Shown piece by piece: positions 1-43,244 of a DNA stretch of 64,000 bases. Position numbers and translations under genes: made by a program. Each line of letters begins with the position of its first letter. Position 1 is the stretch's first letter. Origin of the DNA: Prevotella sp. (lineage in GTDB: Bacteria; Bacteroidota; Bacteroidia; Bacteroidales; Bacteroidaceae); NCBI GenBank assembly GCA_017548275.1, contig JAFZAH010000040.1, forward strand, positions 124,001-188,000, written 5' to 3'. The notes under the pieces were generated by a model. It was not told the DNA's origin. It was given only the letters and a program-made list of their open reading frames with translations, and did no database searches.

Positions 1-788
1 TCATGAGCAGGACAGTTCTTCTTCCATGAGGCATAACGGTATATGTTCATGCTGTTATTCATACCCTCATATCTCAGCATCTTTCCCTGTAAAGTCTGGA
101 AGGGAGTCTCCATCGATTCGTCGAGATGTATGATTTTCATGGCTTCCTGCACTTGTATGGCACCTACTATGGAAGCGCTTACTGGCGTGGTAGCCACCCT
201 ACCCGATGACGATTGCAACCTGACGACATCGGCACATCCCGTACGTAGCATAATGTGATTGAACTCCTCGCGAGAAAGCCCACACTCATAACAACTCATC
301 CCAGGCGTATAGACGCGGACCGTACCTGTGAGATTTTCAATGCTGCCATCTATCCACGACTTGCCCGCCCGCAAGGAAAGTCTGTTGAGTTGATATCTCG
401 CCAATCTGCTGTCCAGACAACCGATGACCACATCGACTGACCTGTAAAGCCCCAAACCGACCTCGGAAAAAAGGTTTCCAACAATCGGCGTGACTTCTAT
501 CTGGGGATTGATTTCTCGTGCTCTTTGGGCAACGACCTCGGCTTTGTATCGATGTTGAAAGGCGTCTTCTTCACGAAAAAGAACACTTCGTGTGAGATTG
601 GATATCTCTATTTGGTCAAAATCGACCACATAAATATGTCCTACCCCAAAGAGGGCAAGGTCTTTGACGACCTCATTGCCCAATGCTCCAGCCCCGGCAA
701 CAAGCACCCGGGCATTTTTCACTTTTTCTTTCTTAAACCATGATAGGAGCGTATAGACTCCATCGCCCCATTCGTAAGTATTCTCCAT
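1..788 (-). CDS. E1-like ThiF/MoeB-family activating enzyme (partial, runs off left edge)
   Basis: Reading the minus strand from the ATG at 788 gives an open frame of about 262 codons that does not stop before base 1. The N-terminus carries the ATP-binding glycine loop GAGALG (residues 32-37), followed by VVDFDQIEISNLTRS, the E1/ThiF nucleotide-binding signature, and CLDSRLARYQLN with the adenylation Asp. A SCYECG pair and a later NCPAH may form the structural zinc site. This family adenylates the C-terminal glycine of a ubiquitin-like protein. Placed 37 bases downstream of the RING-like gene, and with a Ubl, E2 and JAMM gene upstream in the same operon, it is best read as the E1 of that cassette. 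The C-terminal part, where a catalytic Cys or extra domain could lie, is outside the window. Confidence 0.9.
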   Translation of the reverse strand, partial: MENTYEWGDGVYTLLSWFKKEKVKNARVLVAGAGALGNEVVKDLALFGVGHIYVVDFDQIEISNLTRSVLFREEDAFQHRYKAEVVAQRAREINPQIEVTPIVGNLFSEVGLGLYRSVDVVIGCLDSRLARYQLNRLSLRAGKSWIDGSIENLTGTVRVYTPGMSCYECGLSREEFNHIMLRTGCADVVRLQSSSGRVATTPVSASIVGAIQVQEAMKIIHLDESMETPFQTLQGKMLRYEGMNNSMNIYRYASWKKNCPAH

Positions 789-825
789 GATTATCTATAT
801 GAAAAAGAAACATCAATTCGGGATG

Positions 826-3204
826 TCAATTCTCTTCGTACTTGAAGATGGTGTCGCCTACTGTGAAGGTGTCACCATTAGACAGAACGGCTGCTTTACC
901 CACGACGAGTTCGAAACGGCTGTTGTAGAATACGCCGGGAGCCAGCGCTTTAATCATGGGCAATTGTTTGGCTGTATCCACATAGAGTTGTACGTGTTCT
1001 TTCGCCACTTTATTGCTTTTCTCCCAGTTCATTTGTATCTCACACTCTCCCGTCATACCAATGGACACCTTATTACCTACTTTCATCCATTTATGTATAG
1101 GTATGCGCTGATTGGCCTTGATGCCGTTCTGTATCGCCAAGAAGAATTTCTCAGCAAGCATACGCACCGTGACAAGCGAAGCCCCAAGACCGCCACCATA
1201 GATAATGAAATCGAGCAGCATGCTCATCCAACCGTATTTGCTCCCTGATATACTGGAGAAGTAAAGCACGACGAATCCGATAACTGCCGAACATAGACCA
1301 CCGAGCAATGCGCTCTTCATAGGAATGGAAGATTTGATGGTGAGACTGAGCGACAGACAGATGGAGAACAAGAGATACGCAGGCAGCGAGCAATACCATG
1401 GAATATACGTTGTATTAACCGCAGACAACAACACGCAAAAAATGTATGCTCCCAAACCGAAGGCAAGCATGCCAATCAAAGCGGAGAGAAGAGACAATCC
1501 GAAAATCTTCAGGTAAATCTTCCAGTTCTTGTTGCGATATTCGTCAAAATAGCGGAAAATGAGAGAGAGGAAAAATCCGAGCAACAGGCCGATGGAAAGG
1601 AATGCGGCAGTCTTGTTGACGCAGTCGCCATAGAGATTGCTGCGCTGCTCATCGTTGGTGAATCCCACATTGACAATAATTTCTGCCAATCCGCGGAAGA
1701 GTCCCCTGCCAGTGAGTTCAAAGATGACCCAACTGAATAATCCGGCCAAGATACCAGCAAAGGTCTGATAACAATCTCTCAATGATGCTGCCGAAAAGAG
1801 CGACTTCCATTCAATATGGTCTTGAATACCTTCTTTGCAATTCTGTCCGTATTCTGCACATTTGTAACCATTGGCCTTCCAACAAGGAACGTGCATGATA
1901 TGGCGGCATTTTACGACGACCAATTGTCCTGGTTGAATGTCTTGTTTACAGAAATGGCAAATCCTTCTGTTGACATTCGCCTCGGGCACATATTTTTTGT
2001 AGTATTTTGCATTAAACGATTTCGACTTCACCCATGGAATCAACACTTTCATGATGAGGAAGAAGAAAGCCATGGTGAGCAGGGCCACCAGCACGGCAAT
2101 GATGTATTTCATGGCAGTGTCGCCGCCTGTTTCCTCATGAGAGGGCCACGGATTTTCAGCTGTACCGATGGAATACTCACCTTCGCCAATGTTTGTCCCT
2201 TTCCACTCCGCCTGATAAGCCACGTGCCCATGGTAGATTTTTCCGGGTGTGGCCTTGTATGTAAAGGCATAATCGTACATGGCATCTTTCACGGCCTGCT
2301 CAAATTCGGCCATGACGGTGTTCATGTTATCAGAAGGTTTATAAGCACCTGAGCGGTCGGCCACCACGGTGCCCGTGGAGTCGCGCACCTGAGATATTCC
2401 TTGCAGGATGGCCTTGACATTCTCGTCTTCTCCATTGCCAGTGTAATAGAGTGCATAAACCTTCGGCATCAGATGATTCTTGTCGTTTTGGAAATCAGTC
2501 ACCTCGATAAAACCGATACTCTCATCTTGTGGTCTTACACGACTGTCTGTGAAAACAAAAAGTATATTTTTGTCCTTGTTGAGTTGTGCCCGTTTTGCAA
2601 TGTCACTGTTCTTTTTATAACCCGTCTGTTGTTTTACGAGATTCTCCATTTCTGCCGACGCTGTATTAAACTCGGCCAGTTTGGCATAGATGGCACCATA
2701 GAAGAATTTGTTCGCGGCGGGTTTCATCATTTCCTCCTTCATCGTCTTAAAGGACTCAGCGTTAACAGGGACGCTATTGGTCACTTCGTCTCCGAAGAAA
2801 GAGAGATATACACATCCGTTGGGCGCACTCTCCACAAGATGCCCCACGGCCTCGAAAATGCGTTCCTTCCCTTCTTGAGAGATACTTTTATCGACCAGAA
2901 CCGAGAATGTATAGTCTTCGGGGATTCTCTGTCCGGATTTCAGGGCTTCAATCTTACAATCTGAGAGAGGAATGATATTGCCGTCCTCTTTGATGACTAG
3001 ATAGTTTTGCAGTTCCTCGGCCGTCATCTCCTGATTACGTTTTCTATCACCGTCAATGACCCTGAAGAAAAGTGTAATCTGGTCGTTGCCTACGCCATAG
3101 TCGTATTTTTTGTCACAAAACTCTATACGTTGCACATTCTGCGCAACAGCCGAGAGGGCCGCCATCATCAAGAAAGCAGCCATCCATCTGATTTTTGCAC
3201 TCAT
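826..3204 (-). CDS. VWA - transmembrane - RING-H2-like - polytopic membrane - FHA-like protein (candidate membrane E3)
   Basis: The protein has 792 aa if started at 3204, where ATG overlaps the upstream stop as ATGA; an in-frame ATG at 3222 would add six residues. Order of parts: a signal peptide; a von Willebrand A domain with MIDAS-like DxSxS (D105, S107, S109) and a second Asp in VFTDSR (D220); a membrane span at about 365-388; and a cysteine cluster C416-x2-C419-x13-C433-x-H435-x2-H438-x2-C441-x7-C449-x6-C456. Then come about five hydrophobic spans (470-690) and a C-terminal stretch (705-792) with SIG...H.QL...LSNGDTFTVGD that looks FHA-like. The cysteine cluster matches the RING-H2 order except that the last pair is six rather than two apart. 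VWA would be periplasmic and the RING-like knuckle cytoplasmic. Function as an E3 is inference from fold and operon. Confidence 0.8.
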   Translation of the reverse strand: MSAKIRWMAAFLMMAALSAVAQNVQRIEFCDKKYDYGVGNDQITLFFRVIDGDRKRNQEMTAEELQNYLVIKEDGNIIPLSDCKIEALKSGQRIPEDYTFSVLVDKSISQEGKERIFEAVGHLVESAPNGCVYLSFFGDEVTNSVPVNAESFKTMKEEMMKPAANKFFYGAIYAKLAEFNTASAEMENLVKQQTGYKKNSDIAKRAQLNKDKNILFVFTDSRVRPQDESIGFIEVTDFQNDKNHLMPKVYALYYTGNGEDENVKAILQGISQVRDSTGTVVADRSGAYKPSDNMNTVMAEFEQAVKDAMYDYAFTYKATPGKIYHGHVAYQAEWKGTNIGEGEYSIGTAENPWPSHEETGGDTAMKYIIAVLVALLTMAFFFLIMKVLIPWVKSKSFNAKYYKKYVPEANVNRRICHFCKQDIQPGQLVVVKCRHIMHVPCWKANGYKCAEYGQNCKEGIQDHIEWKSLFSAASLRDCYQTFAGILAGLFSWVIFELTGRGLFRGLAEIIVNVGFTNDEQRSNLYGDCVNKTAAFLSIGLLLGFFLSLIFRYFDEYRNKNWKIYLKIFGLSLLSALIGMLAFGLGAYIFCVLLSAVNTTYIPWYCSLPAYLLFSICLSLSLTIKSSIPMKSALLGGLCSAVIGFVVLYFSSISGSKYGWMSMLLDFIIYGGGLGASLVTVRMLAEKFFLAIQNGIKANQRIPIHKWMKVGNKVSIGMTGECEIQMNWEKSNKVAKEHVQLYVDTAKQLPMIKALAPGVFYNSRFELVVGKAAVLSNGDTFTVGDTIFKYEEN

Positions 3205-5516
3205 AGTCTGTTTTTTGCCCATGATATCAAGTCATCTAATTTTTGTTCTCCATAGAAATGTTCGTCAATGCACAGTTCTTGTCTCAGCACTGGGATGGTG
3301 GTGAGCATTCCATCGGTCGAGGTATAGACCATTACGAACCTAAGCAGTCCGATATAAGGTGCCACGGCCTTTCTGACGGAAGGCAAACTGAGGTGAGCAG
3401 CAGCCACCACACACCCTAACGGTTGCATATTTGGTTCAAAAGGTTGTGAGGACACTTTCTCCACCGTACACGCCATCTGTTGTTCTAGTCCATTGATAGT
3501 GCCATGTATGAATCCCAATACTCCATTGTCGGCTGTGGCCGTCATCAGTTGCAGTTGTTCCACCGCTTGGTCTTTTACCATGATGCTATGGCAATCGGCC
3601 AATTTGGCTGCCGTCGGGCTAAGAATATCTATATATTCCACCATCGCCTCCGTGCGCCGCATCATCGGCTGCTGTGGCACTGCTGCCTGCGGTGAAGATG
3701 TTGGACGGAAGGCCGATGCTGGTTGAGATGGTGTTCCCTGCCGTGGAGGCATTGACGGTTGAGATGGAGTTGTCGTTGTAGGTCGAGATGGGATAATGGT
3801 TTGAGGTTGAGATTGAGATGTAGTTGTCGGTTGAGGATTTGATTGAACATTTCTCTCGCTATTGACTGCCCATTGATACAATTTCGTCAAAGAGTACATC
3901 TTCTTCAGGTCATTCTTGGAACTGATAGACCCATCTCGCTTAAAAACGAATATACCCAACTGCTGTCCTTTTGTAAGGATATCCACCACTATGGCAGTAA
4001 GGAAATGCGGATGGGTGTGGTGTTTGAGTTGATGATGAACCGATGTGTCTGCATTGCTGAAGAAGACGCCCAATCCGGGATGCGAGTGCACCCAACAAGT
4101 GAGGTCATATTGAAGACCGGTCTGCTCCCTCAGTTTCTTTAATCGCCCATTAGCCCTCAGTTTAATCTTTCCGCCGAAATTGAGTTCATACTCTTGGAAC
4201 ACTGCATCATCGCCGGGCATGACTACCTCTTCAAGCGACACGCAATACTCTTGGCGCTGGGTATCATAGACCCATCTGCCAAGTACCATGCACCCGTTTT
4301 CGTTAGGATTGGGCGAGTTGCGCAAGTCTTTTGCATACATCTCGTAGATTTCTTTGATGCATGTGTTCTTGAGATAAATGCGTTTGACAGCCGACATGTC
4401 GCAAAATTCTTCCACCTCTATTGGAAAGTATTGAGGATTGCCTATAACATCATCCAGATTCTGGCGTTTGAGTATGGTGGTAGTGGTACGCCGTACTACA
4501 ATGGCAGGTTCTGCCGTAGCATTACCCCTTCCCTTGCTGCCATAAGTGGTTGTCTGATTTCTTGGTGGTGTTGATGCTACAGATGCGGGAGTATTGGTCT
4601 TTTTCCTTGACTTCACCAACCATGTCAGCAATATGATGAGCAGCAATGCCCCCACGCCACAGATAGCAATGGGAATCCATTTCACGGGTTTGTTTTTAGC
4701 CGTCGGCGGCGTAATGCCCAGTTCATTTTCCAGTTTACTGAGCGCTTCCTCGCGACGGTCGAGTTTTTTCTCGGCTATCTCTGTCAATTGCTGCTCGCAT
4801 TTGTCGCGATCGACTAATCCGCTTTTTTTATAGCGTCTGAGGAACGAACTGACAAGTGAGGAAAGTTCTTCACGTTTTTTTATCAAGACGTCTCTTTCTC
4901 CTCTGGCGTATGAGTCTAATTCATTCTCAGCGATATAGGCGTCTTTGTCAGTCCAGTTTCTCAAGTTGGAAATGTGTTCATCAATATTGTTTTGAAAACC
5001 ATTGATGGCATCTTCGGCAAAATACGAATCATTGCCCATGTACTCATCAAACTCCCTGATAACAGTCTCAGTGCCTACGGGAGTTCTTGTTTCCACAGGA
5101 GGAGCAACAGTTTTAGTTGCCATGGAGGCATCATTTCTGGTTTTATTGTCAGAAACGTCGTTTTTCTCTTTTTTAGCCGCTTTATCCTTTTTATCGGCAT
5201 TGGCACTGGTATCATCCATTTTGTGATATTGCCGCCATACTCGCTCGCTGTCGCTCTTGTCCCATGTGAGGATGACCGCCCCGTCTCTTACTATTTCTAT
5301 CTTCCCTGGTTGATTGGTGCCTAAACGTGCTTTATCGTCGGCCGACTTTTGCAAATCGACATACATTGCCGTTGTTGGAGAGGTGACTTCCACCCTGAGC
5401 GTGACAGATGCGTCTTTCGATGTCTTCTTGCCGTCATGAGGCTGGGCAAAGAGCATCGCATGTGAGAAAAGGAGACATACGATGACACTTGCATATTTGA
5501 CCCATCGTTTCATCAT
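3201..5516 (-). CDS. Membrane-anchored JAMM/JAB deubiquitinase-like metalloprotease with a second degenerate JAB-like domain
   Basis: This is a 771-aa protein. A signal peptide (1-24, ending FAQ) precedes an extracytoplasmic region with a charged coiled-coil-like stretch (about 165-260). One membrane span (280-301) follows, flanked by KSRKK, so the rest should be cytoplasmic. The JAMM signature is complete: E406, then HSHPGLGVFFSNAD with H477, H479, S487 and D490. A Pro/Thr/Gln-rich linker (about 555-640) leads to a second block (about 645-765) in which GVLGFIHG, AAAHLSLPS and LRFVMVYTSTDG echo the JAB fold but lack the metal-binding His pair and Asp. JAMM peptidases cleave isopeptide or peptide bonds after the C-terminal Gly of ubiquitin-like proteins; the substrate here is probably the Ubl at 9157-9480. 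ATGA overlaps on both sides imply translational coupling. Confidence 0.88.
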   Translation of the reverse strand: MMKRWVKYASVIVCLLFSHAMLFAQPHDGKKTSKDASVTLRVEVTSPTTAMYVDLQKSADDKARLGTNQPGKIEIVRDGAVILTWDKSDSERVWRQYHKMDDTSANADKKDKAAKKEKNDVSDNKTRNDASMATKTVAPPVETRTPVGTETVIREFDEYMGNDSYFAEDAINGFQNNIDEHISNLRNWTDKDAYIAENELDSYARGERDVLIKKREELSSLVSSFLRRYKKSGLVDRDKCEQQLTEIAEKKLDRREEALSKLENELGITPPTAKNKPVKWIPIAICGVGALLLIILLTWLVKSRKKTNTPASVASTPPRNQTTTYGSKGRGNATAEPAIVVRRTTTTILKRQNLDDVIGNPQYFPIEVEEFCDMSAVKRIYLKNTCIKEIYEMYAKDLRNSPNPNENGCMVLGRWVYDTQRQEYCVSLEEVVMPGDDAVFQEYELNFGGKIKLRANGRLKKLREQTGLQYDLTCWVHSHPGLGVFFSNADTSVHHQLKHHTHPHFLTAIVVDILTKGQQLGIFVFKRDGSISSKNDLKKMYSLTKLYQWAVNSERNVQSNPQPTTTSQSQPQTIIPSRPTTTTPSQPSMPPRQGTPSQPASAFRPTSSPQAAVPQQPMMRRTEAMVEYIDILSPTAAKLADCHSIMVKDQAVEQLQLMTATADNGVLGFIHGTINGLEQQMACTVEKVSSQPFEPNMQPLGCVVAAAHLSLPSVRKAVAPYIGLLRFVMVYTSTDGMLTTIPVLRQELCIDEHFYGEQKLDDLISWAKNRL

Positions 5517-6958
5517 ATCTTAATATCTTTGTTATTCTTATCTCTGTTACCCATATTGGGTTGGTCGCCACGATTGGATTTCTGCTTCACCTGATAGGTC
5601 TTTCCCCCAATGGTAATGGTTTTAGGCTGATTGGAGGCTGTTGACGAACTGGGCCTGTTTGGACTATTGGGATTATTCGGTCTATTGGGTGAATTGGGAT
5701 TATTGGGCTGATTTGCGTTATTGTTATTTTTTACCGCTCTTGCTGCAGCCACGGCGGCTGCATTTTTCCCTAATGGTGCAGCAGAGCCTTTCACCTTTTG
5801 TTCTACTGCCTCCGTGGCCTTTTGTGTCTGTTTCTTAATGGCCTCTTCCGTCCGTTTTTTTGCCTCGTCTTCCGCTTTTTTCATGGCGTTGGCCTGCATG
5901 GCCTCCATGTTTTTGAGGTTTTTCAAACTGCGGAAATGCTGCATGACCTGATTGCCTACAAACCCGAGGATGGCAAGCGCTATACCGCCGATAATCATCC
6001 ACAGATTTCGGCTTTGTGCCTTGTCGGCTTCTGCTTTCTGCTCTGCGGCAATGGAGTCGTTTTTAGCCTTTTCCTTATCCTGTGCAGCCTGTTCCAATTG
6101 CGCCTTTTTGCCATATCCGTCGCTGAGAGTCTGGTTGGCTTTCGCCCTTAATTCCGGATCGGAAATTTTAGAACTGAGTGCATTGAGTTGATTGATGGAA
6201 CCCATAATATTCTCGGAGAGGGTGTTGCCTGTCTCCAAAGGCATGAGTTGCTCGATGCGCTCCATAAGGATTTTTGCCTCTTCGTCGGGCGACATGCCAC
6301 CTCCTGCGCCACCGCCCATCTCGTCAGACAGCGCACCGCCTCCTTCGACATAACTCTGCCCTCCTCCATCATCGACAATTTCCTCTTCATAACCCACTTC
6401 TTCGCGATAGCCTACAATCTTCTTGCCATTCTGGGATGTGCCCTGCCCTCCCCCGGCACTGGTTGCCGGAGCCTTGAGCGGAATTTGCAGGTCATTGCAT
6501 TTTGCGAAGACATTGTATTTCTTTCTCTTCTCATAATGAGCGAGATAAACAGGGATGGAGAGTACGGCATCCGTCTTTTTCCCGACATCGAAAGTGAGTG
6601 ACGGCATGGCTTCCTCATGGATCAAAAAGAATCCGTCGGCTGAGCGTTTGTAAGTGACTCCCGCAGGCACTTGGAACTTTGACGTCGGTTTGCCATGAAA
6701 CTCCACGCCATTGCCGCCATTGCCGTCGAAGAACACGGGAACAACCTCTTTCAGTTCGGAGTATTTTTTACGGTTGTTCTTGTTCAGCAGTTTTCTGGCA
6801 TTGACAAAATCAATCTTCACCGTGGAGCCGTTGACCGCCACATTATAGGTGACGATGAGTTGGTCGCCCGCCGTGGTCTGAAGGGTATCAACAACTGCGA
6901 GAGCCCGCTGAGACAAGAACAACAGGAGCAGAATGGCAGTAAACTTCATCCGCATCAT
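5513..6958 (-). CDS. Exported single-span membrane protein of unknown function in the Ubl cassette
   Basis: 481 aa. I do not recognise the family. A signal peptide (1-21) is followed by a beta-rich N-terminal domain (about 25-170), a Gly/Glu-rich linker and a Lys/Glu/Ala-rich coiled coil. One membrane span lies at about 317-340 (MIIGGIALAILGFVGNQV), followed by a second charged helical stretch, an Asn/Pro repeat (units of PNNPNSPNR) and a basic tail. The N-terminal domain resembles that of the next upstream gene product in size and style (signal peptide, then a section ending in IPVYLAHY or LPVYVGKF), so the two may be distant relatives. Topology puts the beta domain in the periplasm and the coiled coil and tail in the cytoplasm. 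Its start overlaps the preceding stop by one base (TAATG). Confidence 0.75.
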   Translation of the reverse strand: MMRMKFTAILLLLFLSQRALAVVDTLQTTAGDQLIVTYNVAVNGSTVKIDFVNARKLLNKNNRKKYSELKEVVPVFFDGNGGNGVEFHGKPTSKFQVPAGVTYKRSADGFFLIHEEAMPSLTFDVGKKTDAVLSIPVYLAHYEKRKKYNVFAKCNDLQIPLKAPATSAGGGQGTSQNGKKIVGYREEVGYEEEIVDDGGGQSYVEGGGALSDEMGGGAGGGMSPDEEAKILMERIEQLMPLETGNTLSENIMGSINQLNALSSKISDPELRAKANQTLSDGYGKKAQLEQAAQDKEKAKNDSIAAEQKAEADKAQSRNLWMIIGGIALAILGFVGNQVMQHFRSLKNLKNMEAMQANAMKKAEDEAKKRTEEAIKKQTQKATEAVEQKVKGSAAPLGKNAAAVAAARAVKNNNNANQPNNPNSPNRPNNPNSPNRPSSSTASNQPKTITIGGKTYQVKQKSNRGDQPNMGNRDKNNKDIKI

Positions 6959-8022
6959 TATTTGACGCTGTTGATTTTATTATATATTTTATTGATGTCG
7001 GAAGCGTTGGTCTTTTTCCTTCCGTGGTTATGGTTGTTATAACAATTGTACAACGCTTTGACAGCACCGATTACTTTTGTCTTTGTGGCAGAGCGGTTGG
7101 CACTGTTGTAAATCTGCACATAATAATTGTCGAGTTGCTGTTTGATTTGTTGAGCCGAAAGGTTGCGATAGGCGCAGTTGGCATTGGGATCTGGAGGTGG
7201 TGGCGGTTTAATACCATCATCGTCACCGCTGCCGCGACCGCTATGTTTGCTGCATAATCCTTCTTTGAACTCCACCGCCTGCAATTGGTCTATCAAGTCC
7301 TGATAGTTTTGGTGTGTCTGCAGGCTGCCAGCCCATTTGTCGCGTTGTTTTTGAAGACTTGCCACCAATTTGTCTATCTCTTTCTGTAATTTCTGCTTAT
7401 CCTTTGCCGCCTGTTTTTTATGACTGGAATGGGTGCAGAACGTGGTGCTGTTCACTTTCTGAATGAGTTTTTGGGTCTGCTCCTTCAGTTTTGAGTATTC
7501 AGACGTGCCACCCTTACCGGCTTGGATACGAAGCGTAAAGAGTTCCTCGTTCATGAGGATGACCTGCTTGTGTTTCTTGTCTTTGAATTTACCCACATAC
7601 ACTGGCAATGCCACGGGCATCTCCTCGCCATTGGGTATGCTGACGACAGGCAGTCGCATTTTGCTCTGCGGTTCAACACGAAGTATTTTTTTCAGTCCCT
7701 CATACGGTTCTATGGCATCGTGGAAGAACTTGTCAAGGATGATATCGTCTTTTTTGAGTTCTTTCTTCAGTTTCTTTCCGTCGGCGCTGTATTCTTTTGC
7801 GAAGAAAAGCAACACCTGTTCATCGTCGAGATTCTCCACCTCGATGATGACATTCGAATAGCCCTCAACATTGGGCGCATCGAGCGAAAGAAACACGTTC
7901 ATCATGCCGTTGAACTGTGCAGTGGCAGTGGGATTCTGCTCGCTGAGAGCGACGCTTTGCTGCTGAGCAAACATCGCCAATGATGGCAGTATCAGAGCCA
8001 TCAACATCCAGATACGTTTCAT
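6958..8022 (-). CDS. Secreted/periplasmic protein of unknown function in the Ubl cassette
   Basis: 354 aa with a signal peptide (1-19, ending MFAQ) and no later membrane span. The N-terminal half (about 25-165) looks beta-rich and ends in ALPVYVGKF, paralleling the neighbouring 481-aa protein. It is followed by a Lys-rich coiled coil (about 175-250), a Pro-rich linker (PPPPPDPN) and a small helical C-terminal domain with NCAYRNL and YNCYNNHNHG. Cysteines occur in pairs, compatible with disulphides in the periplasm. No family is recognised. Its ATG overlaps the E2 stop as ATGA, so it should be made together with the E2 even though it is exported. Confidence 0.75.
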   Translation of the reverse strand: MKRIWMLMALILPSLAMFAQQQSVALSEQNPTATAQFNGMMNVFLSLDAPNVEGYSNVIIEVENLDDEQVLLFFAKEYSADGKKLKKELKKDDIILDKFFHDAIEPYEGLKKILRVEPQSKMRLPVVSIPNGEEMPVALPVYVGKFKDKKHKQVILMNEELFTLRIQAGKGGTSEYSKLKEQTQKLIQKVNSTTFCTHSSHKKQAAKDKQKLQKEIDKLVASLQKQRDKWAGSLQTHQNYQDLIDQLQAVEFKEGLCSKHSGRGSGDDDGIKPPPPPDPNANCAYRNLSAQQIKQQLDNYYVQIYNSANRSATKTKVIGAVKALYNCYNNHNHGRKKTNASDINKIYNKINSVK

Positions 8023-8702
8023 ATCGTTAGTTTCTTTTTTATAGGTTTGCTTGGTGGTTGGTTAACAGGGGGCACCGGGGGCACGTTTTGAGGTGCTGGC
8101 GGTGCGGCTGGCTGCTCTGGTTCGGGTTCAGCCTGCGTGAACTTCGTCCATCCGTTGGGTTCACCCTCCTCACGCACCCATTCCGCCACATTTTGGTCTT
8201 CGGGATAAGGATAGGTGTTTTGTGCGTGATAGAGTTGGTATTTAAGGTAACGCTCCACTCTGAGCACGAGATCTTTGAGCGAGGCGAGCACTCCCATCTC
8301 TTTGATGGTTAGGCAGACATGTCCCTTGAAACTGCCTGAGTATCTGATATTTGGGTGCCATATGTCTGTCCGGAAGGTAAAGATGGGGTTTCCGTCGGCC
8401 GATGGATAGTTGTTGGGCAGAACAATGCTCATCTTATGGAGTGTGCCGAAAATGGGCTTTCTGGGCGGTTCGGTTTCCTCCACTCCGATGATCGATTTCA
8501 CACGGTACCATATCTCATATTCCGTGGGCAATCCCATGACATTTTTCCTGCGTATGATATATGAGATAGACGGCTGGTGAGAGTTCCGGCTCGATGCCCG
8601 ACGTTTCATGCAAAGCGCATCGAGTTCTTTCCACTCCTGCCAGAGACGCGCGTCGCGGCCCGTCAGTTCCTTCCGGCTGAAATTACTGATTGCTTCGTTC
8701 AT
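8019..8702 (-). CDS. E2-like ubiquitin-conjugating enzyme
   Basis: 227 aa. The core closely follows eukaryotic E2/UBC proteins: NNYPSADGNPIFTFRTDIWHPNI (strands plus the HPN motif, H116-P117-N118), then SGSFKGHVCLTIKEMG with the catalytic Cys at 130, then a helical segment. About 20 residues lie between HPN and the Cys-containing strand start, as in UBC folds. The last 45 residues are Pro/Glu-rich and end in a basic KKKLTI tail, probably disordered. There is no signal peptide, so it should act in the cytoplasm. In this family the Cys receives the Ubl from the E1 as a thioester. It lies between the TonB-like gene (22-base gap) and an exported protein gene (ATGA overlap). Confidence 0.92.
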   Translation of the reverse strand: MNEAISNFSRKELTGRDARLWQEWKELDALCMKRRASSRNSHQPSISYIIRRKNVMGLPTEYEIWYRVKSIIGVEETEPPRKPIFGTLHKMSIVLPNNYPSADGNPIFTFRTDIWHPNIRYSGSFKGHVCLTIKEMGVLASLKDLVLRVERYLKYQLYHAQNTYPYPEDQNVAEWVREEGEPNGWTKFTQAEPEPEQPAAPPAPQNVPPVPPVNQPPSKPIKKKLTI

Positions 8703-8723
8703 TATGATTTACGAATATTGAAT

Positions 8724-9119
8724 TTACTTTTTGAAATTGATGGGCAAAATGAATCGTGACCTGACCGCAATTCCGTTGAATTGGGCTGGTGTCCAATGTG
8801 GCATGGCTTTTACCACACGTACCGCCTCAAGGTCAAGGGCGGGGTCAATGCTGCGTACCACCTTGACTTCACTGATGCGACCATTCTTCTCGACAATAAA
8901 CCGCACGATGACGCGACCTTCGATATTGTTTTTTCTTGCCGATGCCGGATATTTGATGTTCTGAGAGAGCCAGTTGACCAAGGCAGCATTCCCACCGGGG
9001 AAAGAGGCCGTCACTTCAGGGTTTTCATATATTTGGTTACTTTTGGAGTCGCTATCGGACTGCGCTGCGACACCCAGTGGAATGAGCATCAAAATGGCGA
9101 TATAGATAAACTTTTTCAT
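8724..9119 (-). CDS. Exported TonB C-terminal domain protein
   Basis: 131 aa from ATG at 9119. The frame stays open to 9149, but those ten codons are made of a degenerate AATTGTTAATTGTCAATTGTGAATT repeat and are unlikely to be coding. A signal peptide (MKKFIYIAILMLIPLGVAAQ) is followed directly by a TonB_C domain: FPGGNAALVNWLSQNIKYPASARKNNIEGRVIVRF, then VEKNGRISEVKVVRSIDPALDLEAVRVVKAMPHWTPAQ. It lacks the ExbB/ExbD-contacting N-terminal helix and the Pro-rich spacer of true TonB, so it is unlikely to energise transport by itself. TonB_C modules in Bacteroidota also act as envelope binding domains. Its presence between Ubl and E2 is odd and suggests that the cassette works at the envelope. 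Confidence 0.85.
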   Translation of the reverse strand: MKKFIYIAILMLIPLGVAAQSDSDSKSNQIYENPEVTASFPGGNAALVNWLSQNIKYPASARKNNIEGRVIVRFIVEKNGRISEVKVVRSIDPALDLEAVRVVKAMPHWTPAQFNGIAVRSRFILPINFKK

Positions 9120-9123
9120 AATG

Positions 9124-9160
9124 GATGCTTGTGAATTGTTAATTGTCAATTGTGAATTAC
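9124..9160. repeat. AT-rich degenerate repeat between Ubl and TonB-like genes
   Basis: GTGAATTGTTAATTGTCAATTGTGAATTAC: units of TGAATTGT / TTAATTGT / TCAATTGT. A different unit from the heptads but the same style and location (intergenic, between co-transcribed genes). Confidence 0.7.
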
Positions 9161-9480
9161 CCAGCTATAGGGATAGAGATGAGGTGAAGATGATCGCCGG
9201 GTTGTATGTTGTAGTCGATAAGTGCCATCTCGCGTCCTTCATCGTCTTCGAACTCGAGGATGACATCTTCGTCGTCGATGACCTGGCCCATGACATATTG
9301 CACGGGGTTGCCGCCGCCGTCCATCTTCGGCAGTTCAAAGACCTGCACTATGCTGTTAATCTGGTCACGAATGGTTTTGTTGGGGTCTGTCACTTTGACT
9401 TCCACCTCTTCATAAGAGGTTCCATCGATGGTGAGGTTGATGATAAACTCATCGTCCATGTAATAATCTTGATTGTCCAT
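9157..9480 (-). CDS. Ubiquitin-like beta-grasp protein (Ubl modifier)
   Basis: 107 aa, acidic, no signal peptide. From about residue 12 it reads as a beta-grasp: FIINLTIDG / YEEVEVKVTD hairpin, a helix (TIRDQINSIVQVFEL), VILEF and MALIDYNIQPGDHLHLISI strands, then a short tail ending IPIAG at the stop codon. The C-terminal residue is a single glycine with a flexible tail, as needed for adenylation by an E1, and no propeptide needs removing. It has a length similar to YukD/EsaB-type Ubls, but the neighbours (E2, JAMM, RING-like, E1) make a conjugated modifier more likely. It is the first gene of the cassette as transcribed; the next gene upstream, DUF2931, ends 86 bases away. Confidence 0.8.
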   Translation of the reverse strand: MDNQDYYMDDEFIINLTIDGTSYEEVEVKVTDPNKTIRDQINSIVQVFELPKMDGGGNPVQYVMGQVIDDEDVILEFEDDEGREMALIDYNIQPGDHLHLISIPIAG

Positions 9481-9566: not shown

Positions 9567-10613
9567 CTATCGCCATGCTCCTTGGGGTTGGGTGTAGTTG
9601 GGACTTCGATAGCATTCAAACTTATTGCGGAAGACGAGCACCTGGCAAGCATCGGGGCCGATAGCAAGAGGTTCTTTCATGCCGTAGCGGAAAAGGGCGG
9701 GCTCATATTTGTTGCTTTCAGGGTCTATCTGCAAGAGGAAATCGACTTTGGTGTCAGGATGAGCGCCATAGCAGGCACGGAACACCTGTGCCAATTCGTC
9801 GTGCGAGAAGAAGAAATAGGCAGAATATTCGCGCTTACCTACATGCCAGCCCACGCACACGCGACTGGGCTTGCCCGCCTGATGATAACTGAGTAGTGAA
9901 CCGTCGCGCAAGCGGTCAAACGTGCCATCATGACATTTGACCTCGACGAAATCGAGTTCGGGCAGTTTCTCATCTTCGGCATAGTTTGTCCATGTGCTAC
10001 TGTCTTCATCCCACTTTTTCAACACAGGTAGGAAACGGTATATAAACTGCTGCATCATGCGATCGAAGAGGTGGGGATCGGGAAGACCGTGCTGTTGCAT
10101 TTCATCTTTAAAATCATCTCCCATATTATTTAATGAGAGTTGATATATCTCTTCAACGGGAAGCCTCATGGGTGTATCTGTATCTGAAGAAAGAGACGCT
10201 TTTATCCATTTCACAAGTATCTGCTTCTGTCTTCCAAAATACCAAAGAGCCACACCACCATAAGGAGCCACACTGAATGAAATATGCGAATACAACGGTT
10301 CCTCATCTTGAGATTTATTATCCCATAAAGCCTCTAAGGTTGAAACATCAAGTGGCATAGATAACTTATACCTTTTATTTTCTGCAATAGAAAGCCAATC
10401 TATGTCAACCCCATTAGGCATTTGATAAGTAGAACCGTCTATTACAACAAACGGCTGTATATCTCCCCATTCTCCTTTCAATGATTGGCCAAATCGCAAA
10501 TTCTGTTGTGAGCCATCAGCATACCTTAGATTGTAAATCAAAAATACCGCTGGGTACAACAAAGGGGCAGAAAGAGAGGTGTAATATGTATATTTTTTTT
10601 TCTGATTATCCAT
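9567..10613 (-). CDS. DUF2931 family protein (T6SS accessory or candidate immunity protein)
   Basis: 348 aa, no signal peptide seen. Hallmarks of DUF2931 are visible: YTYYTSLSAPLLYP near the start, DWLSIAENKRYKLSMPLDVSTLEALW in the middle of the N-terminal half, and VAPYGGVALWYFGRQKQILVKW. The C-terminal half (WHVGKREYSAYFFFSHDELAQVF, DFLLQIDPE) is less familiar. Genes of this family are common inside Bacteroidetes T6SS clusters near VgrG, effectors and immunity genes. Here it follows the candidate effector in transcription order (58-base gap), which fits an effector-partner or immunity role, though neither is shown by the sequence. Confidence 0.75.
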   Translation of the reverse strand: MDNQKKKYTYYTSLSAPLLYPAVFLIYNLRYADGSQQNLRFGQSLKGEWGDIQPFVVIDGSTYQMPNGVDIDWLSIAENKRYKLSMPLDVSTLEALWDNKSQDEEPLYSHISFSVAPYGGVALWYFGRQKQILVKWIKASLSSDTDTPMRLPVEEIYQLSLNNMGDDFKDEMQQHGLPDPHLFDRMMQQFIYRFLPVLKKWDEDSSTWTNYAEDEKLPELDFVEVKCHDGTFDRLRDGSLLSYHQAGKPSRVCVGWHVGKREYSAYFFFSHDELAQVFRACYGAHPDTKVDFLLQIDPESNKYEPALFRYGMKEPLAIGPDACQVLVFRNKFECYRSPNYTQPQGAWR

Positions 10614-10671: not shown

Positions 10672-12879
10672 TTAATTTTCTGGTACATAAATCATACCAA
10701 AATTATCTTGGATATATTGTCGCATCTCATTCTCATCATAAATAGGTTTGGGACTCTCTATAGAAGCAAAAAAAGCAGCAATTTCGACTGGGAGAAAAAC
10801 TAAATCTACTACAGACTCAAATAACGCTTCTAAAACAATATTAGTCCAATCCCATTCATCACTATTATTAGTATTTGTAGGCAACGCTTCTTTATTAACG
10901 CAAATGGCATAATCATAAACATCTTCTGCGAGCCCTTCAAAAGTAAATACGTTAGCGTATATGGATGCCGCCTTATGAACATAATACCCTCTACGTTTAG
11001 TGGCTATGTTTAGAAAATATGAAGAAGCCTTCTCGTTATTTCTTTCCAATAAGTCTTTGTAATAAATGTATTCCTTTGTAAGCACAATTTGCGCATTCTT
11101 TCCTATCTGATTCCAATTCTGAGTCAAAGCATCGTGACTAAGATATTGTCGATACTTTGAATTCTCGGCAATAAGAGCTGATCTACCATAAGCTGCCTCA
11201 CTTCTTAAAATACGTGCATCAACACTTCCTATTGGTTCTAATTTTGCGGCATGTTCATTAGCATTTATATATAGTTCTTGTTCTTTCTGCAACTTAAAGC
11301 TATTTACGACTTCTTCAGAAGCCCCACTTTCGATGAGTTTTGCTTGTTCTCTATACGCATGAGCTTCTGAGAATTTCTGTTCAGATTGGAATCTAAAATC
11401 GTGCCACTCCTTGCTGTTGATATCCGCATTATGAGCCTTTCTCTCCAATTCACGGGCTTCATTCTCAGCCTTTGCTGCTTTTTCTTCCAACTGCTTTATC
11501 TTTGCTGTTTTTTCAGTTTCTTCAATCCCTCTAATTAATCTGGTAAGTTTACGAGCTTTCAACTCAACAAGTGCAGGAATAATCATAAGTGCATCCAAGA
11601 AACACTCTTTTAAATGATTGATTACCCCTCTTCTATCCTTATTTTGATAACATTCGCAAATTTCATATACATGCAAAAAAATGTCTGCTACAGGCGCACC
11701 AATCATAAATGCAGGATGTGGAACAAATGATAGAGACGTAAATACGAAATGACCCAAATTTTCCAGTGTCAGACTCTTATTCTCCATTCTTATTGCAATA
11801 GCGTAGAATGGAGCCATAATGGCTGATGATCCAACTACAGCCCAATCAAGCAAGGTAGGATCATCTTTAGTATCATAATATCTTTTTTCATAAGCAACAA
11901 TTCCAATTATTGGAAAAAACTCCAAAACATCAAGAGTATCTTCATCTGTCCAATTCTCTGTAAGATGATTGATAAATGCCTTTAAGCCATGCTCTTTTTG
12001 TATTTTAGGCATGACAAACACTTTCGAGCACTCATTTAGACAGACATAAATCAATTTAAAAGACCACCCTTTATTTTTTAATTCGTCAAACAATGGTTTC
12101 CATTTTTTTTCTACATAATCTAATATGTCTTTTCGTGTCTCTGATTTAAATCGTATCTTACCATTCTTATATTTTTTTTTGTTTCTTGTTCTGTTTCCAA
12201 TGCTTTCCCCAAATAAACTACACGCTGCAAAGACAAAATCTTTTAGTTGATGATGTCCACCGACATGAATATATATTTCACACTTATTATGCTTAATCGT
12301 TTGATATAAATAATTGAGTCCCTCATCAAGTCTTTTTTTTGCTTTGTCACCAAAAGACAATGATAAGTTATCTACATTCGTTTTCAAATCAGAACATTTA
12401 ACGAAAGCCTTATCGCAAATATCAACATTCATTTCTACTAAAGAACCCGCCTCTTCATCAATTCTTGGCATAAGCAGATTTAACATGATTTTCGCTAAGT
12501 CTGTTTTGATATTTAACGGATTACTACTCAGGGACTTGAAAAAAGATAAAACATCTAATAAATATCTATTTATGCTATTGAATTGATTCTCAAACGTTAA
12601 ATCTTTTTCATCTGTTATTGAATAATAAAGACTAAATTGTAATTTAGTCGATTCGTTTTGATTCTCTTGAGGCTGACTAATATTTATATCATTAGCATTT
12701 ACGACACTTACTCTCGGTGTGGAAGACGAGGCACAAGACGACAAGTCATTGCTACAATTATTCTTAGAAGAAGTATTTGTAGATACTGTTGAGACATTAC
12801 TTGAAGATGACGTTGTGGTTGCAGATTCAAGTGTACATGAGGATGTGGAACTGTCACATTGCTTTTTGTTATCGCCCAT
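10672..12879 (-). CDS. Large T6SS-associated protein, candidate effector
   Basis: 735 aa with no recognised domain. It is clearly more AT-rich than the tss genes around it. The N-terminal 60 residues are almost wholly Ser/Thr/Asn/Cys. A globular region follows (about 75-335). A long hydrophobic stretch (about 335-440), including WAVVGSSAIMAPFYAIAI, ADIFLHVYEICECYQ and CFLDALMIIPAL, resembles the pre-toxin segments of polymorphic toxins. A Lys/Glu/Ala coiled coil (about 445-515) and a C-terminal part with another hydrophobic patch (VLEALFESVVDLVFLPVEIAAFFASI) complete it. It sits immediately behind the PAAR-like tip gene and before DUF2931, the usual site for cargo. A pore-forming or membrane-acting toxin is possible, but no catalytic motif is visible. 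Confidence 0.65.
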   Translation of the reverse strand: MGDNKKQCDSSTSSCTLESATTTSSSSNVSTVSTNTSSKNNCSNDLSSCASSSTPRVSVVNANDINISQPQENQNESTKLQFSLYYSITDEKDLTFENQFNSINRYLLDVLSFFKSLSSNPLNIKTDLAKIMLNLLMPRIDEEAGSLVEMNVDICDKAFVKCSDLKTNVDNLSLSFGDKAKKRLDEGLNYLYQTIKHNKCEIYIHVGGHHQLKDFVFAACSLFGESIGNRTRNKKKYKNGKIRFKSETRKDILDYVEKKWKPLFDELKNKGWSFKLIYVCLNECSKVFVMPKIQKEHGLKAFINHLTENWTDEDTLDVLEFFPIIGIVAYEKRYYDTKDDPTLLDWAVVGSSAIMAPFYAIAIRMENKSLTLENLGHFVFTSLSFVPHPAFMIGAPVADIFLHVYEICECYQNKDRRGVINHLKECFLDALMIIPALVELKARKLTRLIRGIEETEKTAKIKQLEEKAAKAENEARELERKAHNADINSKEWHDFRFQSEQKFSEAHAYREQAKLIESGASEEVVNSFKLQKEQELYINANEHAAKLEPIGSVDARILRSEAAYGRSALIAENSKYRQYLSHDALTQNWNQIGKNAQIVLTKEYIYYKDLLERNNEKASSYFLNIATKRRGYYVHKAASIYANVFTFEGLAEDVYDYAICVNKEALPTNTNNSDEWDWTNIVLEALFESVVDLVFLPVEIAAFFASIESPKPIYDENEMRQYIQDNFGMIYVPEN

Positions 12880-16094: not shown

Positions 16095-16499
16095 TTAGTT
16101 GTCAACGGTCCAACGGTTGTTGTGGCGTGCGTTTCCTACCTGGATTTCCTTTGCGGAAATGGTGAACTCCTCAAACTGAAGCAGTGCGTTGGTAGAGTCA
16201 TAAGTCTCTGAATATTCCACGACATAACCCTCTTTGAACTGGAGGTTTTTCATTTCACCACCCTGACGGTTGGGGAACGATATCGTGCCGCTCTTGCTCA
16301 TGTATGTGTCAATCATCCATTCGAGAATATCAGTGTTTCCGTCGTCGGTCGACTTCACTTTTACCGTGATTTTACCGCCACGAGTAGTACCTGTGGGCTG
16401 TCCCTCCACATCGGTCTGCTGGTTGAGTTCATACTTTACGTATAAAACCTCGCGCTCTTTAATGCCATCTGCATTGATGGTTGCTGTTCTTGTTGCCAT
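16095..16499 (-). CDS. tssD: Hcp-like tube protein, T6SS TssD (second copy)
   Basis: 134 aa. It begins MATRTATINADGIKEREVLYVKYELNQQTDVEGQPTGTTRGGKITVKV and ends FTISAKEIQVGNARHNNRWTVDN. It has the same layout as the copy at 15488-15904 but is strongly diverged, with matches mainly at the TISA and NNxW positions. Directly downstream of tssC (53 bases), it is probably the main structural tube subunit. Two unlike tssD genes in a row are common in subtype-iii clusters. Confidence 0.92.
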   Translation of the reverse strand: MATRTATINADGIKEREVLYVKYELNQQTDVEGQPTGTTRGGKITVKVKSTDDGNTDILEWMIDTYMSKSGTISFPNRQGGEMKNLQFKEGYVVEYSETYDSTNALLQFEEFTISAKEIQVGNARHNNRWTVDN

Positions 16500-18024: not shown

Positions 18025-18480
18025 CTACTCGGCATCCTCTAGTTCTGCGAGCAGTGCTTTGAGCGCATCTTTAAGGTTACCTCTTGCGGCCTCGTCTTTC
18101 AGTGTATTACGGAGAGTCTTGTTTTTCTCCAATTGTCTGATGACGGAATTGAACGCATCAATCTTCGCTTTTTCTTCGCTCAGCAGTTCGCTTTGGGCGA
18201 TAAGTTGATCATCTTCGAAGTCTTTGATTGACTTGAAGTCGAAATCTTCAAACGCGGCACCACCCTCTTCTGTCTCAAGAGCCACGCCTTTCTTACCAGG
18301 CTGATAATGCTCGAACACTTCTTTCATGTTTTTGGGTTTGAACCCTTCTCTTTCCTCGTCGGTGTTGGGAGCCTCGTCAGTGAATTGGTCAGCATAGAGT
18401 GTTCTGTTTTGCGGGAACTCAATGATACCGTCCTGTGCCTCTGCATCCAGCACTTTTGAGATAACTGTTTTTTTTGCCAT
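18025..18480 (-). CDS. tssB: T6SS contractile sheath small subunit TssB
   Basis: 151 aa, Bacteroidetes-type TssB. It starts MAKKTVISKVLDAEAQDGIIEFP and contains FKPKNMKEVFEHYQPGKKGV and FEDFDFKSIKDFEDDQLIAQSELL, followed by a helical C-terminus (LSEEKAKIDAFNSVIRQLEKNKTLRNTL). It partners TssC in the sheath. It sits between tssH (60-base gap) and tssC, the expected order. Confidence 0.93.
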   Translation of the reverse strand: MAKKTVISKVLDAEAQDGIIEFPQNRTLYADQFTDEAPNTDEEREGFKPKNMKEVFEHYQPGKKGVALETEEGGAAFEDFDFKSIKDFEDDQLIAQSELLSEEKAKIDAFNSVIRQLEKNKTLRNTLKDEAARGNLKDALKALLAELEDAE

Positions 18481-20885: not shown

Positions 20886-21440
20886 TTAGTTCTTAGGTGT
20901 ATCGTCGACGAATTGGAGAAATGCAGGTGGAATAAAAGTAATAGCCACCGCAGCCAACCCTTCTAACTGTACGACAACATGTTTGTTGTTTTTTATTCTC
21001 TTGACAATACCTTCCACTCCTGCAAAAGTTCCCTCGATGACACGAACTCTTTTCCCTTCTTTACGTATGAAGTCGCTATATGTGAGAAACATTACGCTGT
21101 CATCTTGAACGGATGCCACCCGCATGAAATTCTCCATCTGGCGGTCGGGTACGGTCAGTATCTCTTTCTCGCCGTTTTGTTTGGGTTGCATGATATAACG
21201 CATGGGCAAGAGTTCCTGCCGCGTCATTTTGAGTTCGGTAAGTTGCTGTTGTGTGGAATGTACGAAAATGAGATTATGAATGGCAGGCTGGAGAACCCTC
21301 TTCTTTCCCTCCATGTCACCGCTCCACTGATATTGCATAGGCACGAAACATTCGACATTGCATGTTTCGAGATAGTCTTTCACCTTCAACTCACGGCGAT
21401 AGGTGACTCTCATAGGAAACCAATGCATCTCGTTGTTCAT
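20886..21440 (-). CDS. UpxY/NusG-like transcription antiterminator at the head of the T6SS operon
   Basis: 184 aa. NusG N-terminal domain: HWFPMRVTYRRELKVKDYLETCNVECFVPMQYQW, then an RNAP-contact region with HNLIFVHSTQQQL. The C-terminal KOW-like motif is KEGKRVRVIEGTFAGVEGIVKRIKNNKHVVVQLEGLAAVAITFIPPAFLQ. Bacteroidota use such NusG paralogues (UpxY) to read through long operons from their own leader. It is the first gene after the promoter at 21627-21658, with a leader of roughly 180 bases. This suggests it is needed for full-length transcription of the 21-kb T6SS plus Ubl run. An alternative start at the internal Met5 is possible. Confidence 0.85.
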   Translation of the reverse strand: MNNEMHWFPMRVTYRRELKVKDYLETCNVECFVPMQYQWSGDMEGKKRVLQPAIHNLIFVHSTQQQLTELKMTRQELLPMRYIMQPKQNGEKEILTVPDRQMENFMRVASVQDDSVMFLTYSDFIRKEGKRVRVIEGTFAGVEGIVKRIKNNKHVVVQLEGLAAVAITFIPPAFLQFVDDTPKN

Positions 21441-43237: not shown

Positions 43238-43244
43238 CAATGTT

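What the first reader, a model, noticed from the sequence alone, without database searches (positions are those of the whole stretch)
1..9480. Complete ubiquitin-like conjugation and deconjugation cassette in one bacterial operon
A Ubl with a C-terminal free Gly, an E2 with HPN and catalytic Cys, an E1/ThiF protein, a JAMM peptidase with all metal ligands and a RING-H2-like protein lie together, most joined by ATGA overlaps. Bacterial E1-E2-JAB-Ubl operons are known (for example the Bil/Bub antiphage systems), and prokaryotic RING and treble-clef domains have been predicted. This set adds a RING-like module, membrane anchors and exported proteins in the same operon, which I do not recognise as a described type.
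Basis: partly seen in the sequence, partly recalled or inferred. Interest (0 to 1): 0.93.

Follow-up and report, generated by a model that had tools for sequence, protein, structure and literature searches.

The report
Ubiquitin-like tagging inside a bacterial weapon
A gut bacterium's type VI secretion weapon carries, in the middle of its own gene cluster, what looks like a full ubiquitin-like tagging set (tag, activating enzyme, carrier enzyme, membrane ligase and removal enzyme) where the usual membrane-anchor genes are missing, which would give bacterial ubiquitin-like tagging a job outside phage defence.

Summary
In detail: a beta-grasp Ubl ending in Gly, an E2 (HPN, Cys130), an E1, a membrane JAMM peptidase and a membrane RING protein are encoded together. 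But the set lies inside a type VI secretion (T6SSiii) cluster, between the VgrG/PAAR/effector genes and tssG-K-E-F. In 249 genomes of the genus, E2 occurs in 34; 32 have TssC, and the other two loci run off contigs. TssN passes its cut-off in 4, none with E2. TssO and TssR: 0 of 8 tested E2 genomes, 4 of 4 TssN genomes. TssC splits into E2-type and TssN-type sets (100/98). The order recurs in other Bacteroidota, including three apparent isolates; a second arrangement lacks JAB. The RING protein is vWA-TM-RING-TMs-FHA. Best reading: a T6SS subclass in which Ubl conjugation at the inner membrane controls assembly or firing and cassette membrane proteins stand in for TssN-R. Conjugation, substrate and function are inferred. 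Against: one orphan cassette without TssC, and two genomes with the cassette near an extracellular contractile injection system. No description seen in the open-access listings searched; Burroughs et al. 2011, recalled as predicting bacterial RING/E1/E2/JAB systems, could not be read.

The parts
20886..21440 (-). NusG-like gene, first of the cluster
   Evidence: PF02357 E 5.6e-10
18541..20829 (-). TssH/ClpV AAA+ ATPase
   Evidence: AAA_2, ClpB_D2-small
18025..18480 (-). TssB sheath subunit
   Evidence: PF05591 16.2 bits, below cut-off; position beside TssC
16553..17929 (-). TssC sheath subunit of Bacteroidota type
   Evidence: PF17541 E 6.7e-134
16095..16499 (-). TssD/Hcp tube protein
   Evidence: PF17642
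15488..15904 (-). second TssD/Hcp
   Evidence: PF17642
13336..15558 (-). TssI/VgrG spike
   Evidence: PF04717, PF05954
12908..13288 (-). PAAR-like protein (DUF4280)
   Evidence: PF14107 E 1.8e-35; 'PAAR-like' is recalled
10672..12879 (-). putative effector, no Pfam match
   Evidence: position after the DUF4280 gene
9567..10613 (-). DUF2931 protein, where an immunity gene is expected
   Evidence: PF11153 E 6e-9
9157..9480 (-). ubiquitin-like modifier, 107 aa, C-terminal Gly107
   Evidence: AlphaFold2 pLDDT 83.1, beta-beta-alpha-beta-beta-alpha-beta; Foldseek FAT10, ubiquitin variants, archaeal ubiquitin; Gly in 31 of 31 loci
8724..9149 (-). TonB C-terminal protein, not conserved in relatives
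   Evidence: PF03544; 1 of 35 loci mapped
8019..8702 (-). E2-like conjugating enzyme, HPN 116-118, Cys130
   Evidence: PF00179 just over cut-off; PDB profile hit E2-25K E 4.7e-6
6958..8022 (-). Exp1, exported protein (signal-peptide-like N-terminus by eye)
5513..6958 (-). Exp2, exported protein with hydrophobic segment 316-339
3201..5516 (-). membrane JAMM/JAB peptidase: N-part, hydrophobic segment 276-304, JAB domain
   Evidence: JAMM motif; Prok-JAB E 4.6e-4, below cut-off
826..3222 (-). vWA-TM-RING-TMs-FHA membrane protein, putative E3
   Evidence: model m3f9e37283d92; vWA, FHA, RING ligands 30 of 30
3..788 (-). E1/ThiF adenylating enzyme, cut by the window; 394 aa in the contig (L004 13604-14788); tssG, tssK, tssE, tssF, peptidoglycan-binding, glucosaminidase-LysM, Ser/Thr kinase and WG-repeat genes follow outside the window
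   Evidence: PF00899 173.7 bits; full gene and following genes

Best explanation
This is the type VI secretion cluster of a distinct subclass of Bacteroidota T6SS (call it Ub-type) in which a Ubl conjugation cascade is a built-in part. Proposed working: the cytosolic E1 adenylates the Ubl C-terminal Gly and passes it to Cys130 of the E2; the membrane RING protein, which would sense the periplasm through its vWA domain and phosphothreonine through its FHA domain (a Ser/Thr kinase is encoded in the same cluster), acts as E3 and places Ubl on a T6SS component at the inner membrane, most likely a baseplate or membrane-complex protein; the membrane JAB protein removes it. The cassette's membrane and exported proteins (RING, JAB, Exp1, Exp2) would take over the anchoring role of the missing TssN-R. 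Shown here: gene content, embedding, co-occurrence, lack of TssN/O/R matches, folds, conserved catalytic residues. Inferred: topology, conjugation, E3 activity, substrate, effect on assembly or firing.
For: Embedding. Co-occurrence in 249 genus genomes: E2 34, TssC 40, both 32, Fisher p 1.8e-30, relatedness ignored. TssN over cut-off in 4 of 249, none with E2; in the phylum sample 20 of 22 TssC genomes have TssN and none of those 20 has E2. TssO and TssR: 0 of 8 Ub-type, 4 of 4 TssN-type. TssC tree: 35 Ub-type against 26 TssN-type rows, split 100/98. Baseplate TssE/F/G/K profiles match canonical ones at 99.2-99.9%, whereas no cassette profile matches TssN, O, P, Q or R above 34.6%. Same order in contigs of Barnesiella sp. 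An22, Xylanibacter muris and Palleniella intestinalis, whose genomes have TssC and no TssN match. A second arrangement keeps E1, Ubl, E2 and RING in the T6SS cluster in another order. Ubl, E1 and E2 are conserved more than the baseplate and close to the sheath (window genome v G059: Ubl 77, E2 76, E1 75, TssC 79, TssK 42, TssG 48%; v G229: Ubl 96, E2 83, E1 86, TssC 92, TssK 65, TssG 64%).
Against: No biochemistry. Of 14 arrangement-B loci that reach the RING gene none has a JAMM motif, so deconjugation by a cluster JAB is not universal. L164 (titled Muribaculaceae) has an intact cassette with no tss genes in its flanks and no TssC match in the genome held (2.0 Mb, completeness not told). G312 and G406 carry the cassette near an extracellular contractile injection system and have no TssC match, so the role may not be specific to the T6SS membrane stage; in G406 most RING ligands are lost. 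No kinase was matched in the arrangement-B loci by phmmer with the window's kinase. Between the two genus clades the Ubl is only 26-31% identical. TssP and TssQ were tested only by profile comparison, with labels I guessed from gene position.
Confidence: 0.6

Rival explanations
1. Effector-loading tag: Ubl is joined to effectors, adaptors or spike proteins to bring them to the tail, rather than to machinery parts. JAB would recycle the tag.
For: In arrangement A the cassette follows the variable effector/DUF2931 region. Extra Ubl-like copies joined to other sequence lie just before the true ubl gene: L139 8710-9633, L140 5050-5769, L158 8094-8477 (a short odd tail), L189 8668-9483 (TM-like and coiled-coil-like N-part; same contig as G049). 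The two eCIS-linked cassettes lie beside a PAAR gene (Pfam-confirmed in G406) and giant genes.
Against: In arrangement B Ubl-E2 follow tssF, away from the effector genes. The fused copies may be debris of module exchange. A vWA-RING-FHA membrane E3 is not obviously needed for cargo loading.
Confidence: 0.2
2. Structural scaffold: Ubl serves mainly as a fixed part of the membrane complex, as the beta-grasp domain of EccD in type VII secretion does and as proposed for TssN, with E1/E2 fixing it covalently once.
For: TssN is reported to have an EccD-like ubiquitin-like domain (PMC10781749, passages); EccD of ESX-5 is among the Foldseek matches of the Ubl (ranks 30 and 45, E 1.6e-3 and 2.0e-3); TssN was not found here.
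Against: Conserved E1, E2 and a JAMM peptidase point to a reversible cycle in arrangement A; profile comparison of Ubl with TssN is negative (0.2%).
Confidence: 0.1
3. An antiphage Ubl system (Bil/Bub-like) that merely sits in the T6SS island.
For: Bacterial E1-E2-JAB-Ubl operons are known in phage defence (recalled); the orphan cassette L164 shows that it can occur without tss genes.
Against: Two gene orders, both interleaved with tss genes; 77 of 80 named loci have a tss, vgrG or PAAR-like gene within the flank held (of the other three L161 is a 6.7-kb contig, L195 ends upstream at the contig end and shows none in the 10 kb downstream, L164 is the orphan); no TssN/O/R where tested. PADLOC gives no match at E 0.01 for Ubl, E2, JAB or RING, only E1 matches.
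Confidence: 0.05

Closest known systems
Bacteroidota T6SSiii with the TssN-Q-O-P-R membrane complex (PMC10781749 and PMC4714493, passages seen)
   Same: TssB, C, D, E, F, G, H, I, K and a PAAR-like tip; TssE/F/G/K homologous by profile.
   Different: TssN, TssO and TssR not found; Ubl/E1/E2/RING-FHA and (arrangement A) JAB genes in the cluster; separate TssC branch.
Bil (BilABCD) and Bub antiphage operons (recalled; no paper on them seen beyond listings)
   Same: Ubl, E1, E2 and JAB encoded together.
   Different: T6SS context, RING-FHA membrane protein, membrane-bound JAB, single Ubl domain (that BilA has two is recalled); no PADLOC match besides E1.
Prokaryotic E1/E2/JAB/Ubl operon types of Iyer et al. 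2006 (PMC1779556, passages seen)
   Same: Ubl + JAB + E1 + E2 neighbourhoods, type 6d including a Bacteroides.
   Different: The 6d E2 lacks the classical His; here HPN is conserved. No T6SS link in the passages shown.
Bacterial RING + E1 + E2 + JAB + YukD-like Ubl systems of Burroughs et al. 2011 (recalled from its abstract; PMC5938088 not held)
   Same: Possibly the same biochemical set.
   Different: Cannot tell; the paper could not be read. I recall no T6SS link.
PpkA-Fha threonine-phosphorylation control of proteobacterial T6SS (starts of abstracts in a listing)
   Same: Ser/Thr kinase and FHA domain in a T6SS cluster.
   Different: Here the FHA domain is at the end of a RING membrane protein.

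Membership tests
T6SSiii (Bacteroidota T6SS) | TssC of Bacteroidota type, TssD, TssH, VgrG | tested here: met
T6SSiii (Bacteroidota T6SS) | Baseplate TssE, F, G, K | tested here: met
   profile comparison 99.2-99.9%
T6SSiii (Bacteroidota T6SS) | Membrane complex TssN, TssO, TssR | tested here: not met
   TssN no match in the own genome and none over cut-off in the 34 E2 genomes of the genus (weak sub-cut-off matches in G020, G059, G156, G224, on other contigs than the cassette); TssO, TssR 0 of 8 Ub-type with 4 of 4 positive controls. PMC10781749 reports TssO and TssR as absent or unidentifiable in 27% and 31% of T6SSiii, TssN nearly ubiquitous (passage)
T6SSiii (Bacteroidota T6SS) | TssP, TssQ | tested here: inconclusive
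   no match of the compared cluster profiles above 13.3%, with TssP and TssQ labelled by me from position; no genome-wide search
Ubiquitin-like modifier | beta-grasp fold | tested here: met
Ubiquitin-like modifier | conserved C-terminal Gly | tested here: met
   Gly 31 of 31, last residue in 30; of 80 named loci 78 had a Ubl, 76 ending in G, L165 and L194 with short tails after it (L165 is the contig of G157)
E2 conjugating enzyme | UBC profile match, HPN and catalytic Cys | tested here: met
E2 conjugating enzyme | Ubl thioester on Cys130 | not testable with these tools
   needs protein
RING E3 | eight metal ligands | tested here: met
   30 of 30 genus loci; motif in 71 of 73 named loci, the other two with altered spacing; last pair is C-x6-C; Pfam RING models under cut-off; ligands mostly lost in the eCIS-linked G406
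RING E3 | binds E2 and speeds transfer | not testable with these tools
   needs protein
JAMM peptidase | E, HxHP, S-x2-D | tested here: met
   HxHP..S..D in 16 of 18 arrangement-A loci, the other two (G068, G172) cut before JAB; 74 of 75 named JAB genes, L161 being cut; the Glu was checked in the window protein only; 0 of 14 arrangement-B loci
Bil antiphage system | matches to defence-system profiles beyond E1 | tested here: inconclusive
   none in PADLOC-DB 2.0.0 of 2023, which may lack Bil models
Bil antiphage system | phage protection | not testable with these tools
   needs experiment
Burroughs 2011 RING/E1/E2/JAB systems | as defined in that paper | not tested
   paper not held

The most novel reading that the evidence does not exclude
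Bacteria have a class of contractile injection machines whose membrane stage is built around an integral, reversible ubiquitin-like cascade: a vWA-RING-FHA membrane ligase reads envelope and phosphothreonine signals and tags machine parts to license assembly or firing; this module replaced the whole TssN-R membrane complex and is also used by an extracellular contractile injection system lineage.
Probability: 0.45. Interest if true: 0.95.

Novelty: new variant of a known kind. Interest (0 to 1): 0.87.

Why it matters
The bacterial ubiquitin-like conjugation that I recall as characterised is tied to phage defence. A conserved E1-E2-RING-JAB-Ubl set inside a secretion machine would give it another kind of target, bring a eukaryote-like chain including a membrane E3 with an FHA domain into gut bacteria that appear to be cultured, and make two questions testable: what a bacterial E3 modifies, and how a T6SS without a recognisable membrane complex is anchored and fired.

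Tried and rejected
Stand-alone antiphage operon: not my first choice because of the T6SS embedding (see rivals). MAG assembly artefact: unlikely, since contigs of three genomes whose titles name a strain and no MAG show the same order. TonB_C protein as a member: rejected, 1 of 35 loci. Remote homology of cassette proteins to TssN-R: hhalign best was the RING transmembrane part against TssN, 34.6%, E 4e-4, which I take as shared helical make-up but cannot exclude as true. Of the canonical profiles used there, TssN, TssO and TssR rest on Pfam matches in G016, while TssP and TssQ were named by me from position and size; the 'TssQ' may be a second TssO (G026 and G132 show two TssO matches side by side). 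PDB profile search with the Ubl: poly-ubiquitin chains gave small whole-sequence E-values, but single repeats have i-Evalues of 90-110, so I do not use them; the fold search is the evidence. First TssC tree: loci on the - strand were misread, most were dropped as short and one misread row stayed in; discarded and rebuilt, 61 of 68 candidate rows kept after a length filter, removal of near-duplicates and leaving out L229. In one search I labelled as Ub-type G131 and G172, whose E2 lies beyond the contig end (G131 shows E1 in the cluster, G172 no cassette gene), and TssC rows on other contigs than the E2. L206 bore my label UbA but groups with arrangement-B sequences. The fold list covers mainly residues 94-317, so absence of other folds there means nothing. 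Literature: ten searches (one search found 0 papers) showed no listed paper joining T6SS genes with a Ubl/E1/E2 cassette; only the top rows of long lists were seen and only open-licence papers are held, so this is not proof of absence.


Full report
What is there. On the - strand of the window a run of genes encodes a Ubl (9157-9480), a TonB_C protein (8724-9149), an E2 (8019-8702), two exported proteins Exp1 and Exp2, a membrane JAB protein (3201-5516), a membrane RING protein (826-3222) and the start of an E1 (3-788). The window begins inside the E1; the contig (C40) shows it is 394 aa.

Its surroundings. Upstream on the same strand lie a NusG-like gene, ClpV/TssH, TssB, TssC (PF17541, E 6.7e-134), two TssD, VgrG, a DUF4280 protein (PAAR-like, recalled), a putative effector and a DUF2931 protein. 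Downstream of the E1, outside the window, lie tssG, tssK, tssE and tssF, a peptidoglycan-binding protein, a glucosaminidase-LysM protein, a Ser/Thr kinase and a WG-repeat protein. TssE and TssK had only sub-cut-off Pfam matches and TssF and TssG none, but profile-profile comparison with canonical Bacteroidota TssE, F, G and K gave 99.2, 99.9, 99.8 and 99.4%. So the cassette sits in the middle of a type VI secretion cluster.

Is that general? With the E2 as query, 34 of 249 genomes of the genus have a match: 17 carry close relatives (71-84% identity apart from the window itself) and 17 only distant ones (42-50%); G224 carries both kinds. TssC occurs in 40 of 249. Both occur in 32 (Fisher p 1.8e-30; related genomes are not independent, so the number overstates). 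The two E2 genomes without TssC (G047, G245) have the locus cut by a contig end, and G131 and G172, with TssC and no E2, are likewise cut. The other TssC genomes without E2 are G016, G026, G075 and G132, which have TssN, and G042 and G137 with partial TssC matches only. TssN over its cut-off occurs in exactly those four genomes. Twenty further genomes had weak matches below the cut-off, among them the E2 genomes G020, G059, G156 and G224, on other contigs than the cassette. In a sample of 345 genomes of the phylum TssC occurs in 22; 20 of these have TssN over cut-off, the others being the window's genome and G271 with a weak sheath match; TssN over cut-off occurs in 21 in all; E2 occurs in the window's genome, G312 and G406, none with TssN over cut-off. 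TssO and TssR were sought in eight Ub-type and four TssN-type genomes: 0 of 8 and 4 of 4 each.

Gene order. I read 31 of the 34 E2 genomes (not G051, G136 or G199; of G224 one of its two loci) plus G131, G172 and two TssN genomes. Arrangement A: NusG, ClpV, TssB, TssC, TssD, TssD, VgrG, PAAR-like, effector region, DUF2931, Ubl, E2, Exp1, Exp2, JAB, RING, E1, TssG, TssK, TssE, TssF, LysM, kinase, WG; single genes are missing, moved or beyond the stretch in some loci. Arrangement B: ClpV, TssB, TssC, TssD, VgrG/PAAR-like, an exported protein, E1, TssG, TssK, TssE, TssF, Ubl, E2, two exported proteins, RING; none of the 14 such loci that reach RING has a JAMM motif. In G016 and G075 (TssN-type) no E1, E2, Ubl or RING was matched in the stretches read. 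In named genomes 202 places encode a relative of the E2; the best 80 were returned, all with Bacteroidota titles, including Barnesiella sp. An22, Xylanibacter muris PMUR and Palleniella intestinalis PINT (titles without 'MAG', so apparently isolates), Muribaculaceae, Tannerella, Dysgonomonadaceae and a Sphingobacteriia bin. Within the flanks held, 77 of 80 show a tss, vgrG or PAAR-like gene. L161 is a 6.7-kb contig; L195 ends upstream at the contig end and shows none in the 10 kb downstream; L164 is a true orphan, an intact cassette followed by unrelated genes, in a 2.0-Mb genome without a TssC match. L202-L206 and L208, whose E2s are only 42-43% identical to the window's and one of which (L206) has a TssC that groups with arrangement B, keep the A order with JAB, so arrangement B looks like a rearranged form that lost JAB. 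A TssC tree of 61 rows places 35 Ub-type rows on one side of a branch against 26 TssN-type rows, support 100/98; several long branches meet, so the deep order is unsure.

Outside the T6SS. In G312 and G406 a STAND NTPase, E1, Ubl, E2, JAB and the vWA-(RING-like)-FHA protein lie beside a PAAR gene and giant genes and, about 20 and 43 kb away, an extracellular contractile injection system. The Pfam matches (sheath PF17482/PF04984, gp19 tubes, gp25, VgrG-like hub, PAAR, nSTAND1) were made in G406 only; G312 has the same run of genes by eye. So the module's common partner may be contractile injection machines at large rather than the T6SS membrane stage alone.

How it probably works. E1, E2 and Ubl without membrane segments, with E3 and peptidase on membrane proteins whose catalytic domains I place in the cytosol from signal peptide and segment counts (inference), would confine tagging to the inner membrane where the baseplate docks. 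A kinase and an FHA domain in one cluster recall the PpkA-Fha pathway of proteobacterial T6SSs (starts of abstracts). Since TssN, the proposed docking hub with its ubiquitin-like domain (PMC10781749, passages), is missing, the RING, JAB and Exp proteins are the candidates for the anchor; profile comparison gives no clear homology to TssN-R, so this is replacement by inference. Ubl, E1 and E2 are conserved more than the baseplate and close to the sheath, as expected of a core part.

What would be new. In the main text of PMC4714493 'ubiquitin' and 'ThiF' occur 0 times; in PMC10781749 'ubiquitin' occurs twice, about EccD and TssN, and 'ThiF' and 'JAB' 0 times (term counts and passages). PMC4714493 lists a putative T6SS in Prevotella stercorea found beside those of Bacteroides and Parabacteroides, which might be of this type (not checked). 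PMC3482391 (passages) treats JAB domains as toxins, a different matter. Ten literature searches listed no paper joining the two, but Burroughs et al. 2011 was not held, and the conjugation set itself may be predicted there. I therefore call it a new variant of known kinds, joined in a way I have not found described.

Noticed in passing
window 43230-43412 +; 43963-44143 +: Cobalamin riboswitch and a Bacteroidales-1 (6S-like) RNA, both over Rfam gathering scores.
   Followed up: no
L139 8710-9633; L140 5050-5769; L158 8094-8477; L189 8668-9483: Second Ubl-like copies joined to other sequence (in L189 a transmembrane-like, coiled-coil-like protein) just upstream of the true ubl gene, without a terminal Gly.
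   Followed up: partly
L238/L239 and L236/L237 (genomes G406, G312): The cassette with a STAND NTPase beside a PAAR gene and giant genes, in the region of an extracellular contractile injection system; the RING ligands are largely lost in G406.
   Followed up: partly
L164 9649-18317: Intact orphan Ub cassette without tss genes, preceded by two proteins that look like FHA domain proteins by eye.
   Followed up: partly
L202-L206, L208: Distant E2s (42-43%) in arrangement A with JAB; L206's TssC groups with arrangement B, which suggests that arrangement B lost JAB secondarily.
   Followed up: partly
G049 contig C6 (L090): Two TssC-like genes in one T6SS cluster, either side of the tssB gene.
   Followed up: no
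genome G224, contigs C81 and C79: One genome carries both a close (A-type) and a distant (B-type) E2 and two TssC genes.
   Followed up: no
window 8724-9149 -: TonB_C gene between ubl and E2 only in this genome among the loci mapped; a 69% DNA match to this stretch lies on contig C42.
   Followed up: no
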